Positions 33,365-57,536 of a stretch of DNA of 64,000 nt are shown here, one piece after another. Source of the stretch: Sphingomonas abietis (GTDB taxonomy: Bacteria; Pseudomonadota; Alphaproteobacteria; Sphingomonadales; Sphingomonadaceae); assembly GCF_027625475.1 (NCBI RefSeq), contig NZ_CP115174.1:4113501-4177500 (forward strand), read 5' to 3'. The position numbers were made by a program, and so were the translations under genes. The notes below the pieces were generated by a model. That model was not told the origin of the DNA, did not search any database, and saw only the letters and a list, made by a program, of their open reading frames with translations. Position 1 is the first letter of the stretch. Every line of letters begins with the position of its first letter.

Positions 33365-33815
33365 ATGACCAAGGCTATTTCATTCGCGCTTTGCGGCGCG
33401 TTTCTACTTGCATCCGCCGCACAGACACAGACTTCTTCGCCCGTCGCATCACCCGATCCGCTGGCGGCGCCTAATCCTGCACCAACCGGTTCCGCCAAGA
33501 TCATCATGTACCGCGGCTCGGCGCTCATGGGCTACGCGCTCGGGTGCCCGATCCGTTTCAAAGGCGCCGAGGTGGTCGAGCTAGGCCGCGGCAAGTTCGC
33601 TGAGTGGGCGGTGCCGGCCGGGCATTATATCCTGACCAACAAGACCGCGAGCGTGGATATCCGTTGATCCAGGCGAAACGGCCTATGTCCGCTGTCAGAT
33701 CAAGACTGGCATGATGACCGGACGGGCCGACCTTCAGATCGTCGATGAGGCGAGTTTCATGGAGCATCGCAAGGATCTGGTGCAGAAGGATGTGGAGATC
33801 GCGCCGGTTTCTTAG
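33365..33815 (+). pseudogene. Secreted DUF2846-like protein with frameshift
   Basis: The gene opens with a signal peptide (ISFALCGAFLLASAAQTQT) and a lipocalin-like DUF2846 pattern: AKIIMYRGSALMGYALGCPIRFKGAEVVELGRGKFAEWAVPAGHYILTNKTASVDI. The frame then ends at 33667, but the following DNA continues the domain in the next frame (VDPGETAYVRCQIKTG...EHRKDLVQ) to a stop at 33813. One extra base near 33661 explains this. The IS701 copy sits immediately after the gene; its target duplication contains the stop codon. Confidence 0.7.
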
Positions 33816-33817
33816 CA

Positions 33818-35184
33818 TTACAGTTGCATTCTAGTTTTGAGATGAGCTCGTCTGGCAGCGGCTTGGTGCGCGCGTCGCCAGCATGACCAGGCGATGATGT
33901 ACGCGGGCCGTATGCGGCGCTGAGCGAGCTTGTTGGCGATCCGCCGAACTTCCTGGATCGACCAGCGGATCAGATCCTGACGGTCCGCGTCCTCGATCTT
34001 TTTGGGGGCGTCACGGCATTGGCGCGGTATCGGATCACCGCCATCATGGCGAAGGCGAGCATGACCAGAGAGACGTGGCGATGCCAGCCATGCCACGAAC
34101 GGCTTTCGTTATGATCGAGGCCGAGTTCGTTTTTGGTGGTCTCGAAGCTATCTTCAATCGCCCAACGACGGCCTTCGACAGCGACGAGTGTCTGGATGTT
34201 GGTGCCGGCCGGGCACCAGGTCGTGAAGTAGGCCAGGTCACCGTCGCTGATGTTACGGCGGATCAGCAGGCCCCGGGTCCACACGCCTGATTTCGTCTCG
34301 TCATATTCATCGGCATCGAGATCGGCGAGCTCGCAATATGCCCAGTCATGAAGACGGGCGCCCTTTGTGCCCTCACCAGCGGACAGGCGTTTCCATGCGT
34401 CTGCATCGAGGTCTTGTGCGATCTCCTCCGCCTTGCCTGCGACCGGGGGCTTGTCGCCCCAAGAGCCAAAATAGTGATCCGACTTCACGCCGAGAACGTA
34501 GCCCTTGCAGGCTCGACGCAGGGCCTGCTCGACGTCACCGACCCCATATACGGCGTCCGCCGCGACCCATGAAAATGGGACCTTGGCCGCCAAAGCCCGC
34601 TGTATCATCTGAACAGCCAAAGCCGGCTTGGTGGCGAAGGCTAACGCTTCAGGGACATGGGTTGCGGCAAGTCGTGCGGGATCACCCGTCCAGCTCTTTG
34701 GAAGATACAAAGCGCGATCGATAAACGCGTGCCCGCGAGCCGATACATAGGCCACGAATACACCGATCTGGCAGTTCGTGATCTTGCCAGCCGATCCGGT
34801 ATATTGACGCGCAACGCCACAGGAAGCCTTGCCTTGCTTGAGGAAACCGGTCTCGTCGATGACCAGGACTGCCTCGTCGGTCGCAAGGCTCTCAACAACA
34901 TAGTCTCGTACGATGTCGCGAAGCTCGTCTGCCTCCCATCGCCCGCGGCCCAAAATAGCCTGTTGCCGCCAAGGCCCCGGATCCCCTGCAGCCTCGGCGC
35001 GCATCCAACCCGTCTTGCGGCGCTCGTCACTCAGCAAGCCGTCCAGAAACAGGTTCGCAGACGCCGCAACGCGCTCCTGCGTGAACAACCCGCGCATACG
35101 GCTCTTCACGTCCCGCAGCGAGGACGCCCACAACTCCAGTGTCGCTTCTATCGATGCACCCGTCATCCACGGCCTCCTTACCAT
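33818..35184 (-). CDS. tnp: IS701 transposase, likely made by -1 frameshift
   Basis: The zero frame (35184 to 33970) gives 404 aa with DDE-type motifs: LVIDETGFLKQGKASCGVARQYTG (about 108-131), WVAADAVYGV and VEGRRWAIEDSFETTKNELGLDHNESRSW. It ends abruptly in SRTRTVRI. The conserved family C-terminus (DLIRWSIQEVRRIANKLAQRRIRPAYIIAWSCWRRAHQ) lies in the -1 frame, ending in the terminal repeat. The zero-frame codons C-CCA-AAA (34006-34000) form a perfect X-XXY-YYZ slip site at the overlap, giving a protein of about 455 aa. Confidence 0.85.
34000..34006 (-). promoter_or_regulatory. -1 frameshift heptamer CCCAAAA
   Basis: Read on the minus strand, zero-frame codons CCA and AAA preceded by C form CCCAAAA. 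Slipping back one base continues as AAG ATC GAG into the conserved C-terminal frame. Immediately downstream GATCGA and TCGATC, with GCGGA and TCCGC inside, can fold into a hairpin that could stimulate slipping. Confidence 0.7.
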
Positions 35185-35280
35185 GGAGACCTATTGATTC
35201 AGAGTTCCGCTTGATATGCAACTGTAATGTTAGGGTAAACATGGGAAGGGCCGCTCCTAGCGGGGCGGTCCATAGAGGCC

Positions 35281-35432: not shown

Positions 35433-35843
35433 CTAATTTTCAATGACGATTCCAAGCGCGGCAGCGGCGCAGCGGCGCAATTCGTCAACGATATTCGAGC
35501 CAAGCTCGATCTGACTATAGCTGCGCGATCCTGTGACATGGTGCTTCGTGTAAGGGAGATTGAGACGGTGATATCCTACTGTTGCAAGCATATCAGCCTT
35601 TGCCCAGCGCGGGCCGTCACCCCAAGGTGCGGGAATTTCTAGATTTATCTTCATGTGCCAATGCATCATCTCGGGTGGCACAGATTCCGAAAGCAGAATA
35701 ACTGTAGCAAGGTCATTGCGGCGTTTCAGCTTAGGCGAAATAATAACCGCCAATCGCCTTTTTACCATCTCCGGTTCACGAAAGCCCGTGGTGTAGTCGC
35801 AAATTACGATAGTTCCCGGCTTCGGGTGATAAGGAAGGCCCAT
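35433..35843 (-). CDS. PemK/MazF-like growth inhibitor
   Basis: A protein of about 136 aa with the PemK/MazF start and core: PKPGTIVICDYTTGFREPEMVKRRLAVIISPK (about 6-37), ATVILLSESVP, and a conserved KADMLATVGYHRL strand. These toxins are ribosome-independent mRNA endonucleases. It lacks a recognisable antitoxin gene upstream, and is longer than classical MazF (about 110 aa), so it may be a solitary relative. The start at 35843 is chosen by family alignment; upstream ATGs are rejected. Confidence 0.75.
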   Translation of the reverse strand: MGLPYHPKPGTIVICDYTTGFREPEMVKRRLAVIISPKLKRRNDLATVILLSESVPPEMMHWHMKINLEIPAPWGDGPRWAKADMLATVGYHRLNLPYTKHHVTGSRSYSQIELGSNIVDELRRCAAAALGIVIEN

Positions 35844-36012
35844 GATGCGTTGATGGCCGACGAGTCTCTCTCTTGCAAGACGTCCCACGTAAACCCCACC
35901 CTCTCGGGCGGGCACCGTCCCGCCGTCGAGGCGCCGCCCGCCTTCCATCGCTGATGCATCGCGCATCATCCAGCAGCCATATGGAGGGCGCTTTCAAGCG
36001 CCCTCCTTCAGA

Positions 36013-38358
36013 TCACCAGACCGTCGCCCCCATCTCCTCCAGCCATGAGCTGGAGCTCTCGTCGACCAGCGTGTCCATCAGCGTGAAGCCGTCGCCATCG
36101 GTGCTGATATCCTCGTTCAAGGACCTCGCGCCGAACTTGCTTGCGTATTCGCCGATGACGGCATTGCCGAACTTCTTCGCCCGTCGCTCTATCTCTGCGA
36201 TCGGAATGCCGCCGGACATCACGGCCATGTAAAGGTTGCTCGCCGCGTCGTCTCTGTCGGCCGGCGACAGATAGCCTGGCAGTGCTCGCTTTATACGCGT
36301 CAGCACATCGGTACTTTCACGACTTCCCCTGCATCTCGTGGTCTTGTCCCAACGGTGCGCGCGGTTGGCAGGGAGCTTCAATACCCCCCGCCACCGCTCG
36401 ATCGCGCTCGGACTCACGCCCTGCTCCCTGGCGACACGGGCGTCAGAATACCCAAATGAATAAAGCAGCATGCGAGCAGCGCGGGCTTCAGGCGAGAGAT
36501 GCGCGCGATCGGGGTTGTTCGATGGCAATCCTCGCCGGCGGCGCCAACTGAACGCGCTGCGCTCGGCGACCCCGACAAACTCGGCTAGCTTCTTGTCACT
36601 CAGCCCGAGCGCATATCCTTGCTGATATTGTGCCTCGTGCGCGGTCAGGATCGCGCCTGAAACGCACCCTCTGCGCCCGTAGCTCTTGCGAGGGGTTGGC
36701 TGAAAGTCGGATGCGAGGTCGGGCATTTTCTCGCGCGGTGGCGGCACGTTGGCAGGAAGCCCTCTGCGCTGCCTCCATTCTCTGATCGAAGTAAGGCCTC
36801 GTCCACCCGGCGAAAGGATGTCCCGCCAGTTCCTGTACTCGTGCAAGCGCCCTGTGAGGCTCGAAAGCCCGAGCCGCACGAGCAGATCGCCGAGGACCGC
36901 GTCGGGCGTCCGTGCCGGATCCTGTGGATAGGTCAGCAACCCTGCCAGCGTCGCGGTCGGCATGAAACTGCGTTGCGGCAGGAATGTCACCGAAGCGCCG
37001 TCCGGCAACCGGATCGAACCCGTCCCGTGCGGCCAGAGCCCGGCCACAGCGCGCAGCAACGTGCTCTTGCCGCTTCCCGACGGGCCTTTGACGAGAATGC
37101 GCGATCCCTTCGCGATCCTGAATTCCGGGACGGTCAGCATCGGCTCGCCGTTGGGATATTGGATGGTGAGATCGTGCAGCTCGAAAGCGCGCTCGCCGGC
37201 GGGCTCTAGCGCAAGATCCCCGCCGATCCGGACATCCATCGCCTCGTCAAAATACCGCAGACGCGAAGCGGACGACCGCAGGATCGCGAGCGACTGGTAA
37301 TGCACGACGAGAACGCCCGCGCCTTGGAAAATGACCGCCATGGCCATCGAGACGATGGCGATGTCGCCGATCCGCATCGTCCGGTTGAGCACGAACGGCA
37401 CGCAGATGAGCGACGCGATCACGGAGAGGACGGCGTTGGGGGTCCGCGTGGCGAAGATGACGCGCAGATTGGCGACGGTATAGTCGCGCCAGTTCCTGCG
37501 AATGAGCGAAAAGGTCTCGGTCAGGCGACGATATTCCAGGCCGGCCCCACGCTCGAACGCGATGGCTTCCCGATTTTCACGGATGCTCGCCATTTCCTGG
37601 CGAAACTGCGCCTCGAGCCGTTGCCGCACGACCTCGGTACGCGTCAGCTTGCGGCCGATGAAATGCGTGAACACCGTCCACAGAATGGAGAAGATCAGGA
37701 CGCCATACAGCAGATATCCATATAGGATATATTCCGTGCCGAAGAAATTGACCTCCAACGGTGGCGATAGACGCCATAGTTGCGCGGAATACAGGACGAG
37801 TGGCGTGATGAAATAGAATATCCCCGGCCCCTGCTCGATGATCGAGGTGACGAAGATATTGACGTCATCCTGGATACGTTGCTCGGGGTGATCCAGCTTG
37901 TCCTGAGTGCCCAGATGATAGTAGCGATCGTCGCTCATCCATTTTTCAACAAACCGGTCGTTGAGAATGGTGCGCGCACGAATCTTGAGGATGTAGCGAA
38001 GCAGTTCCGAGACGAGCGCGGCGGCGACCAAGATGGTCGCCGCGATCACGAGCTGTCCCACGGCCGTCATCGCAGCGCTCCGGTTGAACACCGCAAGCGC
38101 GTTCATCAGGTCGGCGCTGGCGAGCGACGACAGGAGTCCGAGATAGCCGTTGCCAATGATGAGCACTGCGAACACGGCGATCAACGTGCCATCACGCCAA
38201 GGATGCGCCCGCAGATACAGACCGATCAGCTTCGCCCCATATCGGACATCGCGCCACACGTCATCGACTTGTATCTCCGGTGGGCGCTCGGAGAGAACCA
38301 CCGCCGCCTCTTCGGGACTGGACAGAGGATCTCGCTCGACAGCGACGTCTTGAACCAT
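36013..38358 (-). CDS. Chimera: ABC transporter fused to phage regulator
   Basis: The 781-codon ORF joins two unrelated genes. Residues 1 to about 515 are an SbmA/BacA-like ABC transporter: membrane domain (about 60-370), Walker A GPSGSGKST (about 436), Q-loop FLPQRSF, ending at ILSPGG just inside the ABC signature. The signature Gln, Walker B and H-loop are missing. The rest is a phage-type regulator with HTH units ending WRQRRGLPAN, WRRRRGLPSN and WRGVLKLPAN, and an acidic sigma-factor-like tail. The junction lies near 36810. It starts 4 nt after the TonB receptor stop, so it was in that operon. Confidence 0.8.
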   Translation of the reverse strand: MVQDVAVERDPLSSPEEAAVVLSERPPEIQVDDVWRDVRYGAKLIGLYLRAHPWRDGTLIAVFAVLIIGNGYLGLLSSLASADLMNALAVFNRSAAMTAVGQLVIAATILVAAALVSELLRYILKIRARTILNDRFVEKWMSDDRYYHLGTQDKLDHPEQRIQDDVNIFVTSIIEQGPGIFYFITPLVLYSAQLWRLSPPLEVNFFGTEYILYGYLLYGVLIFSILWTVFTHFIGRKLTRTEVVRQRLEAQFRQEMASIRENREAIAFERGAGLEYRRLTETFSLIRRNWRDYTVANLRVIFATRTPNAVLSVIASLICVPFVLNRTMRIGDIAIVSMAMAVIFQGAGVLVVHYQSLAILRSSASRLRYFDEAMDVRIGGDLALEPAGERAFELHDLTIQYPNGEPMLTVPEFRIAKGSRILVKGPSGSGKSTLLRAVAGLWPHGTGSIRLPDGASVTFLPQRSFMPTATLAGLLTYPQDPARTPDAVLGDLLVRLGLSSLTGRLHEYRNWRDILSPGGRGLTSIREWRQRRGLPANVPPPREKMPDLASDFQPTPRKSYGRRGCVSGAILTAHEAQYQQGYALGLSDKKLAEFVGVAERSAFSWRRRRGLPSNNPDRAHLSPEARAARMLLYSFGYSDARVAREQGVSPSAIERWRGVLKLPANRAHRWDKTTRCRGSRESTDVLTRIKRALPGYLSPADRDDAASNLYMAVMSGGIPIAEIERRAKKFGNAVIGEYASKFGARSLNEDISTDGDGFTLMDTLVDESSSSWLEEMGATVW

Positions 38359-56122: not shown

Positions 56123-57536
56123 CATTACAGTTGCATTCTAGTTTTGAGATGAGCTCGTCTGGCAGCGGCTTGGTGCGCGCGTCGCCAGCATGACCAGGCG
56201 ATGATGTACGCGGGCCGTATGCGGCGCTGAGCGAGCTTGTTGGCGATCCGCCGAACTTCCTGGATCGACCAGCGGATCAGATCCTGACGGTCCGCGTCCT
56301 CGATCTTTTTGGGGGCGTCACGGCATTGGCGCGGTATCGGATCACCGCCATCATGGCGAAGGCGAGCATGACCAGAGAGACGTGGCGATGCCAGCCATGC
56401 CACGAACGGCTTTCGTTATGATCGAGGCCGAGTTCGTTTTTGGTGGTCTCGAAGCTATCTTCAATCGCCCAACGACGGCCTTCGACAGCGACGAGTGTCT
56501 GGATGTTGGTGCCGGCCGGGCACCAGGTCGTGAAGTAGGCCAGGTCACCGTCGCTGATGTTACGGCGGATCAGCAGGCCCCGGGTCCACACGCCTGATTT
56601 CGTCTCGTCATATTCATCGGCATCGAGATCGGCGAGCTCGCAATATGCCCAGTCATGAAGACGGGCGCCCTTTGTGCCCTCACCAGCGGACAGGCGTTTC
56701 CATGCGTCTGCATCGAGGTCTTGTGCGATCTCCTCCGCCTTGCCTGCGACCGGGGGCTTGTCGCCCCAAGAGCCAAAATAGTGATCCGACTTCACGCCGA
56801 GAACGTAGCCCTTGCAGGCTCGACGCAGGGCCTGCTCGACGTCACCGACCCCATATACGGCGTCCGCCGCGACCCATGAAAATGGGACCTTGGCCGCCAA
56901 AGCCCGCTGTATCATCTGAACAGCCAAAGCCGGCTTGGTGGCGAAGGCTAACGCTTCAGGGACATGGGTTGCGGCAAGTCGTGCGGGATCACCCGTCCAG
57001 CTCTTTGGAAGATACAAAGCGCGATCGATAAACGCGTGCCCGCGAGCCGATACATAGGCCACGAATACACCGATCTGGCAGTTCGTGATCTTGCCAGCCG
57101 ATCCGGTATATTGACGCGCAACGCCACAGGAAGCCTTGCCTTGCTTGAGGAAACCGGTCTCGTCGATGACCAGGACTGCCTCGTCGGTCGCAAGGCTCTC
57201 AACAACATAGTCTCGTACGATGTCGCGAAGCTCGTCTGCCTCCCATCGCCCGCGGCCCAAAATAGCCTGTTGCCGCCAAGGCCCCGGATCCCCTGCAGCC
57301 TCGGCGCGCATCCAACCCGTCTTGCGGCGCTCGTCACTCAGCAAGCCGTCCAGAAACAGGTTCGCAGACGCCGCAACGCGCTCCTGCGTGAACAACCCGC
57401 GCATACGGCTCTTCACGTCCCGCAGCGAGGACGCCCACAACTCCAGTGTCGCTTCTATCGATGCACCCGTCATCCACGGCCTCCTTACCATGGAGACCTA
57501 TTGATTCAGAGTTCCGCTTGATATGCAACTGTAATG
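56123..57536 (-). mobile_element. IS701-family insertion sequence, copy 2
   Basis: A second complete 1414-bp copy, same orientation as copy 1. The flanks carry the 4-bp repeat CTAG (56119-56122 and 57537-57540), distinct from TTAG at copy 1. The ends are the same perfect 14-bp repeats. Because each copy has its own matching duplication, they inserted independently. Confidence 0.93.
56125..57491 (-). CDS. tnp: IS701 transposase (copy 2), likely -1 frameshift
   Basis: Identical to the transposase of copy 1 throughout: a 404-aa zero frame (57491 to 56277), then the conserved C-terminus in the -1 frame after the same CCCAAAA heptamer at 56313-56307. The frame organisation in two independent insertions speaks against a chance mutation in one copy. 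Confidence 0.85.

What the first reader, a model, noticed from the sequence alone, without database searches (positions are those of the whole stretch)
33970..34100. Canonical -1 frameshift site in an IS701-type transposase, conserved in two copies
The zero frame stops after 404 codons, without the C-terminus expected of IS701 transposases. That C-terminus is encoded in the -1 frame, and the overlap contains C-CCA-AAA in the correct phase. A potential hairpin (GATCGA...TCGATC with GCGGA...TCCGC inside) follows. Both independent insertions carry the same arrangement, so it is not a random lesion of one copy. Programmed frameshifting is known in IS1 and IS3 families, but I know of no established case in IS701.
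Basis: partly seen in the sequence, partly recalled or inferred. Interest (0 to 1): 0.82.

Follow-up and report, generated by a model that had tools for sequence, protein, structure and literature searches.

The report
Frameshift-gated tail of IS701 transposases
A common bacterial jumping gene hides the last part of its enzyme in a different reading frame behind a slippery run of letters, and the same kind of arrangement recurs in many of its relatives, whose gene annotations usually miss it.

Summary
Window 33816-35229 (minus strand; second copy 56123-57536) is a 1414-bp IS701-family element, in 8 identical copies in its genome. Its core frame ends 404 codons after the first ATG (398 from a likelier start). 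A conserved C-terminus follows in the -1 frame, behind CCCCCAAAAA with C_CCA_AAA in phase.

Of 72 non-redundant relatives with an intact core and a recognised C-terminus, the C-terminus is -1 in 55, +1 in 14, in frame in 3; in the window's own clade -1 in 49 of 51. In its own frame it is under core-like purifying selection (pN/pS 0.25 against 0.28). Slippery runs lie in the linker of 65 of 69 shifted elements (5.8 expected; 14 of 1380 core control windows). The runs differ by branch: C5A5 to C2A8, A8/A9, G6, AnGn.

Best reading: programmed frame transition, ribosomal -1 at C_CCA_AAA here, while other branches probably use transcriptional slippage. Nothing was measured. My ten literature searches found no description of frameshifting in IS701; ISfinder, TnPedia and most subscription papers could not be searched.

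The parts
33816..35229 (-). IS701-family insertion sequence, copy 1, 1414 bp
   Evidence: Exact repeat with copy 2; 8 copies in the genome, 0 mismatches over 1414 bp; NF033540 421 bits against cut-off 150
33812..33815 (.). Target-site duplication TTAG (one side)
35230..35233 (.). Target-site duplication TTAG (other side)
33816..33829 (.). Terminal inverted repeat CATTACAGTTGCAT; contains the stop codon of the -1 frame
   Evidence: stop at 33818-33820 checked
35216..35229 (.). Terminal inverted repeat, other end
35173..35179 (-). Shine-Dalgarno-like AAGGAGG, six bases before ATG 35166-35164 (likelier start than 35184)
33970..35184 (-). Zero-frame transposase ORF (404 codons; 398 from ATG 35166) with DDE_5 domain; its last nine codons lie beyond the slip site
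33999..34008 (-). Slippery run CCCCCAAAAA
   Evidence: a C*A5+ run of at least 9 bases in 46 of 51 clade members
34000..34006 (-). Heptamer C_CCA_AAA in zero-frame phase
   Evidence: in phase in 28 of 51 clade members, the A_AAA tetramer in 48 of 51
33821..33976 (-). Conserved C-terminal domain (DLIRWSIQEVRR...AWSCWRRAHQA...) encoded in the -1 frame
33970..33972 (-). Zero-frame stop TGA
56123..57536 (-). Copy 2 of the element, identical, flanked by CTAG/CTAG
56307..56313 (-). Same heptamer in copy 2
   Evidence: copy 2 run 56306-56315

Best explanation
The element makes two products from one gene. Most ribosomes stop at TGA 33972-33970 and release a protein with the N-terminal part and whole DDE catalytic core but only a short, unconserved tail. 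A minority shift back one base when the Pro (CCA) and Lys (AAA) tRNAs sit on C_CCA_AAA at 34006-34000 and re-pair on CCC and AAA. They then translate the C-terminal helical domain and give the full transposase (about 449-455 aa). Requiring a shift keeps the amount of complete transposase low. The C-terminus lies where Tn5 transposase has its C-terminal dimerisation helices (recalled), so I infer that it is needed for pairing the ends and that the short product may bind ends and inhibit. Shown: the arrangement, its conservation, selection on the C-terminus, and the excess of slippery runs. Inferred: that the ribosome and not RNA polymerase slips in this element, the low rate, and the roles of the two products.
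For: C-terminus in -1 in 49 of 51 non-redundant clade members with intact core. C-terminus pN/pS 0.25 in its own frame against 1.5 and 2.0 in the other two; core 0.28 (48 elements). In the -1 frame the Pro codon at the run is CCC/CCA in 37 of 37 and the Lys codon AAA in 44 of 45; core usage is 42% and 28%, C-terminus usage 36 of 48 and 76 of 98 (4 of 49 elements lacked the motif and were not counted), so the excess is large against the core and modest against the C-terminus. In-phase C_CCA_AAA in 28 of 51 clade members, in-phase A_AAA in 48 of 51. C_CC.A_AA.A is listed among motifs shifting at more than 0.10% without stimulator in E. coli, and V_VV.A_AA.R among the most efficient (PMC4066793, passages). 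C5A5 is a poor transcription-slippage site: either direction needs a non-wobble mismatch (my inference), and PMC5009743 reports slippage at T5C5 undetectable without context features (passages). 8 identical copies, 4-bp duplications matched at 5 of 7 sites, suggest recent transposition of this very arrangement. 26 of 69 shifted elements have no ATG/GTG/TTG in the C-terminal frame before the C-terminus, against separate initiation; 43 have at least one.
Against: No expression, reporter or peptide data. Clade members with C4A6 or C3A7 keep no X_XXZ_ZZN heptamer in phase, only the A_AAA tetramer, which is weak in E. coli (PMC4066793). L047 and L051 have lost the run (L051 has A4G6 instead). One member (L053) is in frame and one (L086) is +1.
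Confidence: 0.68

Rival explanations
1. The frame change is programmed but happens in transcription: RNA polymerase slips on the run, some mRNAs carry an extra base, and normal translation of these gives the full transposase.
For: Within the clade the run drifts to C4A6, C3A7 and C2A8, which keep no in-phase heptamer but longer A runs. Elsewhere in the family A8/A9 runs with +1, G6 with +1 and AnGn with -1 look transcriptional, and direction differs between branches; PMC3711429 takes mixed direction as a sign of transcriptional realignment (passages). Template A5G5 slippage makes the transposase of a Roseiflexus IS630 element (PMC5009743, passages).
Against: A5 alone is short (9 A or T is the efficient case in PMC5009743, passages); shifting the C5A5 hybrid by one needs a non-wobble mismatch (inference). 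Direction is constant at -1 in 49 of 51 of the clade, which PMC3711429 takes as a sign of ribosomal shifting. The A_AAA tetramer gives a weak ribosomal route in 48 of 51.
Confidence: 0.22
2. The C-terminus is made as a separate small protein by its own start or by coupled re-initiation, not as a fusion.
For: One GTG (34096-34094) lies in the -1 frame upstream, and 43 of 69 shifted elements have some ATG/GTG/TTG in that frame. In a sister clade the zero-frame stop is often ATGA or GTGA, a coupling motif.
Against: In 26 of 69 shifted elements no ATG/GTG/TTG is available in that frame. The in-frame Streptomyces-type homologues make one chain: the 120 hits listed of 7991 cover 98-100% of an in-frame query. 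Runs sit between the domains in 65 of 69.
Confidence: 0.05
3. A chance frameshift mutation that spread with the element, or a sequencing error.
For: The 8 copies here are identical, so one event would be copied to all. Damaged copies do occur (L186; L203).
Against: Same kind of split in 69 of 72 non-redundant elements with intact cores; C-terminus under purifying selection; runs in 65 of 69 against 5.8 expected.
Confidence: 0.03

Closest known systems
IS3 and IS1 family programmed -1 frameshifting (A_AAA_AAG and similar)
   Same: Transposase of an insertion sequence made by a shift between overlapping frames at a slippery heptamer
   Different: There an upstream DNA-binding ORF is generally joined to a catalytic ORF (PMC5009743, passages). 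Here the first frame already holds the whole catalytic core and the shift adds only a C-terminal domain; no stimulator shown
IS630 (Roseiflexus) transcriptional slippage at T5C5
   Same: Ten-base two-letter run used to make a transposase
   Different: Run letters, direction and family differ; there a 5' hairpin is required (PMC5009743, passages); none was looked for systematically here
IS982 family element ISLpl4 (+1 frameshift)
   Same: Transposase whose two coding parts are joined by a frameshift
   Different: Different family and direction; single elements described there (PMC7335449, passages)
IS701-family elements ISRm31 and IS1452
   Same: Closest named relatives in the plasmid listing (60 of 701 records shown); -1 C-terminus with C4A6 and CCG-A7 runs
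   Different: Annotated as zero-frame 404- and 416-aa proteins
Tn5 (IS50) transposase
   Different: About 9-14% identity; one uninterrupted frame (recalled)

Membership tests
IS701 family | NCBIfam IS701 transposase model over its cut-off | tested here: met
   NF033540 421 bits, cut-off 150
IS701 family | Target duplication of exactly 4 bp (PMC2266710, passages) | tested here: met
   L001 CTAA/CTAA; L004, L005, L006 CTAG/CTAG; tandem pair L007/L008 flanked by CTAG; L002 and L003 mixed CTAG and CTAA
IS701 family | Length 1400-1550 bp (PMC2266710) | tested here: met
   1414 bp
IS701 family | Variant YREK motif, usually lacking the Tyr (4 of 27 elements have it), with R-3-E-6-K kept | tested here: met
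   EGRRWAIEDSFETTK read by eye in the 404-aa translation
IS701 family | Terminal consensus ---YACT-Y--YR (stated in the paper not to represent the whole family) | tested here: inconclusive
   CATTACAGTTGCA matches YAC, Y and YR but not the T at position 7
Programmed -1 ribosomal frameshift | X_XXZ_ZZN heptamer in zero-frame phase within an overlap | tested here: met
   C_CCA_AAA at 34006-34000
Programmed -1 ribosomal frameshift | Conservation of site and frame relation across species | tested here: met
   49 of 51 in -1, run in 46 of 51; the exact heptamer only in 28 of 51
Programmed -1 ribosomal frameshift | Downstream structure stimulator (common, not universal) | tested here: inconclusive
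Programmed -1 ribosomal frameshift | Measured shift above background | not testable with these tools
   Needs reporter or mass spectrometry

The most novel reading that the evidence does not exclude
Making the complete transposase conditional on a frame transition between catalytic core and C-terminal domain is the general state of much of the IS701 family, kept while the device turns over: C/A runs read -1, A8/A9 runs read +1, G6 runs read +1, AnGn runs read -1, in different branches and probably by ribosomal shifting in some and polymerase slippage in others. Two different-looking C-termini (a WS-x-WRR-x-HQ helix type and a zinc-ribbon type) are split this way, which points to selection for gating as such and not for one inherited signal.
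Probability: 0.62. Interest if true: 0.75.

Novelty: new variant of a known kind. Interest (0 to 1): 0.62.

Why it matters
Frameshift control of transposases is described for a few families (IS1, IS3, IS5, IS630 in PMC5009743, passages). Here it appears in most sampled branches of another family with a different layout, in which the shift adds a C-terminal domain to an already complete catalytic core. The turnover of slippery motifs and directions between branches makes IS701 a natural experiment on how ribosomal and transcriptional slippage may replace each other. In practice, 15 of 15 shifted elements that carried an annotated transposase, four of them named elements, were annotated without their C-terminus (the plasmid gene table used is incomplete and omits pseudogenes), and the NCBIfam IS701 model stops at the core, so constructs built from such annotations would lack a selected domain.

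Tried and rejected
Random lesion or error: rejected. Separate initiation: unlikely. In-frame copies L088, L090-L092 beside out-of-frame copies in one Bradyrhizobium draft looked like a natural experiment, but the copies lie at or near contig ends, so I give it no weight. Sister clade B (L099, L103, L104/L134, L107, L108, L118, L147, L204, L205) has the C-terminus in -1 without a long homopolymer run; its mechanism stays unexplained. Viral contigs gave nothing for the cyanobacterial query and two in-frame loci for the Streptomyces query. A search of 244 genomes with the Pandoraea protein found matches in 2. The predicted structure was made for an in-frame Streptomyces-type homologue (L131; mean pLDDT 69.6, C-terminus 45-55), so the C-terminal fold is uncertain; the best structural alignment to Tn5 ends at model residue 364.

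Literature: searches. Of the seven papers holding both 'IS701' and 'frameshift' I saw passages of all seven; those passages describe no frameshifting in IS701. PMC13233619, PMC12898284 and PMC10322971 were seen in listings only. Not held: PMC7190074 and doi 10.1093/molbev/msr155. PMC3711429 (passages) lists frameshifted DDE_Tnp_1 clusters that could include IS701 members under that Pfam name; I could not exclude it.

Rows dropped before counts: the window genome's own loci (L001-L012, L101, L123, L137) were left out and the window copy stands for them. Of 187 sequences examined, 63 had no core end or no recognised C-terminus: other C-terminal types, fragments and truncated contigs. 14 of these had good cores: L034, L035, L085 and L171-L180 are cut off or followed by other sequence, L106 looks like a damaged clade B copy (of L171-L180 only L171 was looked at there). 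So the 72 are elements with a recognised helix-type C-terminus. 83 representatives became 72 after 11 without an intact single-frame core were dropped. L202-L223 came later and are not in the counts. The run pattern tested was written after the runs had been seen.

Full report
What is there. The window holds two copies of a 1414-bp insertion sequence on the minus strand (33816-35229 and 56123-57536), identical over 1417 bp. The genome search found 8 copies, each with 0 mismatches over 1414 bp. The ends are CATTACAGTTGCAT repeats; duplications are 4 bp, TTAG here and CTAG at copy 2; of 7 sites 5 have matched repeats and 2 mixed ones. The protein of the main frame hits DDE_5 (E 5e-46) and the NCBIfam IS701 model (421 bits, cut-off 150). 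It is an IS701-family element and probably moved recently.

The frame break. The main frame ends at 33970 after 404 codons from the first ATG. An ATG six codons later has AAGGAGG six bases upstream and is the likelier start (398 codons). The run CCCCCAAAAA lies at 34008-33999, and zero-frame codons CCC CCA AAA AGA put C_CCA_AAA in phase. The -1 frame then reads through a conserved block, DLIRWSIQEVRRIANKL...AWSCWRRAHQAAARRAHLK, to a stop inside the terminal repeat.

Is it a lesion? Genome, plasmid and viral searches added loci down to about 42% identity to the window protein (L097); 22 of 385 genomes of the class and 76 of 398 of the phylum had a match, and later 18 of 296 of the order. A core profile and a C-terminus profile were used to find both parts and their frames. 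Of 187 sequences, 124 had both parts, collapsing to 83 at 95% identity: -1 in 65, +1 in 14, in frame in 4. Of the 72 with an intact single-frame core: -1 in 55, +1 in 14, in frame in 3. The window's clade, one starred group of 51 rows on the core tree, has -1 in 49, +1 in 1, in frame in 1.

Selection. Over 48 clade members, pN/pS of the C-terminus is 0.25 in its own frame, 1.5 and 2.0 in the other frames; the last 110 core codons give 0.28. The linker after the run shows little constraint in any frame (0.85-1.01; 19 elements, 7 codons). So the out-of-frame C-terminus is translated and useful, and the zero-frame tail is not conserved.

The run. In the clade a C*A5+ run of at least 9 bases is present in 46 of 51 (0.9% of shuffles): C5A5 in 27, C4A6 in 7, C3A7 in 7, others fewer. 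L051 lost it but has A4G6, and L047 has neither. The in-phase heptamer C_CCA_AAA is in 28 of 51 and the in-phase tetramer A_AAA in 48 of 51. At the run the -1 protein's Pro is CCC/CCA in 37 of 37 and Lys AAA in 44 of 45; the core uses these in 42% and 28%, but the C-terminus itself in 36 of 48 and 76 of 98, so this argument is strong against the core and modest against the C-terminus. Over all shifted elements with intact cores, 65 of 69 have a slippery run in the linker; shuffled linkers give 5.8 and control windows inside the core 14 of 1380 (the pattern was written after seeing the runs). In 18 elements a stop in the C-terminal frame close to the core end narrows the place of the shift to 14-78 bases, and the run, or its greater part, lies inside in 17, the exception being L103.

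Across the family. Betaproteobacterial and Xenorhabdus elements have A8/A9 and +1 (L096, L189-L192). Leptolyngbya, Rhodococcus, one Streptomyces and a Deinococcus (the last not among the 72) have AnGn and -1 (L098, L197, L198, L200). One Streptomyces-type lineage is in frame (L097, L131, L132); the 120 listed of 7991 homologues of L131 cover 98-100% of it. The tree needs 6 changes of frame state against 16 in shuffles, but it is a quick tree with long branches among the distant rows. A second C-terminus, zinc-ribbon-like (PPPQPSLP...RPPPxQCPxC), is split too: of 6 distinct loci, +1 in 3, -1 in 2, in frame in 1, at A7, A8 or G13 runs; three of these come from one genus and two have only fragments of a core, so this is weaker. 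Clade B is -1 with no such run.

Mechanism. For this element C_CCA_AAA was measured as shift-prone in E. coli (PMC4066793, passages), whereas C5A5 would need a non-wobble mismatch for polymerase slippage (inference; compare T5C5 in PMC5009743). For AnGn, backward slippage needs only rG:dT and predicts an inserted base, i.e. -1, as observed (inference). A8/A9 resembles known transcriptional slippage. I therefore favour ribosomal shifting in the window's element and a mix across the family.

Known or new. The searches named under Tried and rejected found no statement of frameshifting in IS701; PMC5009743 names IS1, IS3, IS5 and IS630 as users. The closest named elements, ISRm31 and IS1452, have the same split but are annotated as zero-frame proteins, as are all 15 shifted elements with an annotated transposase checked; L189, L193, L194, L197 and L200 had no transposase for this element in the gene table. 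New variant of a known kind.

Noticed in passing
G000:C1:389863-392697 (L007, L008): Two copies of the element in tandem, CTAG-IS-CTAG-IS-CTAG: one copy apparently inserted into the target duplication of another.
   Followed up: partly
L002 and L003 (G000:C1:3000170 and 1421998): Copies with mismatched flanking repeats (CTAG/CTAA and CTAA/CTAG), as expected if two copies recombined; L002 also shares its 12-base left flank with L004.
   Followed up: no
window 36013-38358, minus: ORF of 781 aa that begins like an SbmA/YddA-type ABC transporter and, after the LSPGG motif, continues as an apparently unrelated HTH-like protein: looks like a fusion or deletion junction (names recalled; read).
   Followed up: no
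window 35433-35969, minus: ORF resembling a PemK/MazF-type toxin next to the IS (recalled resemblance, not tested; read).
   Followed up: no
L099, L103, L104, L107, L108, L118, L147, L204, L205: IS701 sister clade with C-terminus in -1 but no long homopolymer; similar AAA..ACGAGTCC stretch and zero-frame stop in ATGA/GTGA/CTGA context.
   Followed up: partly
L136, L139, L140, L146, L149, L153: IS701 elements with a zinc-ribbon-like C-terminus, also split at A7/A8/G13 runs in either direction (L153 in frame).
   Followed up: partly
L109, L133, L135, L138 and kin: Further subgroup in which a CPCC-type C-terminal block appears in +1 after a conserved zero-frame (R/A)RG segment; read by eye only.
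   Followed up: no
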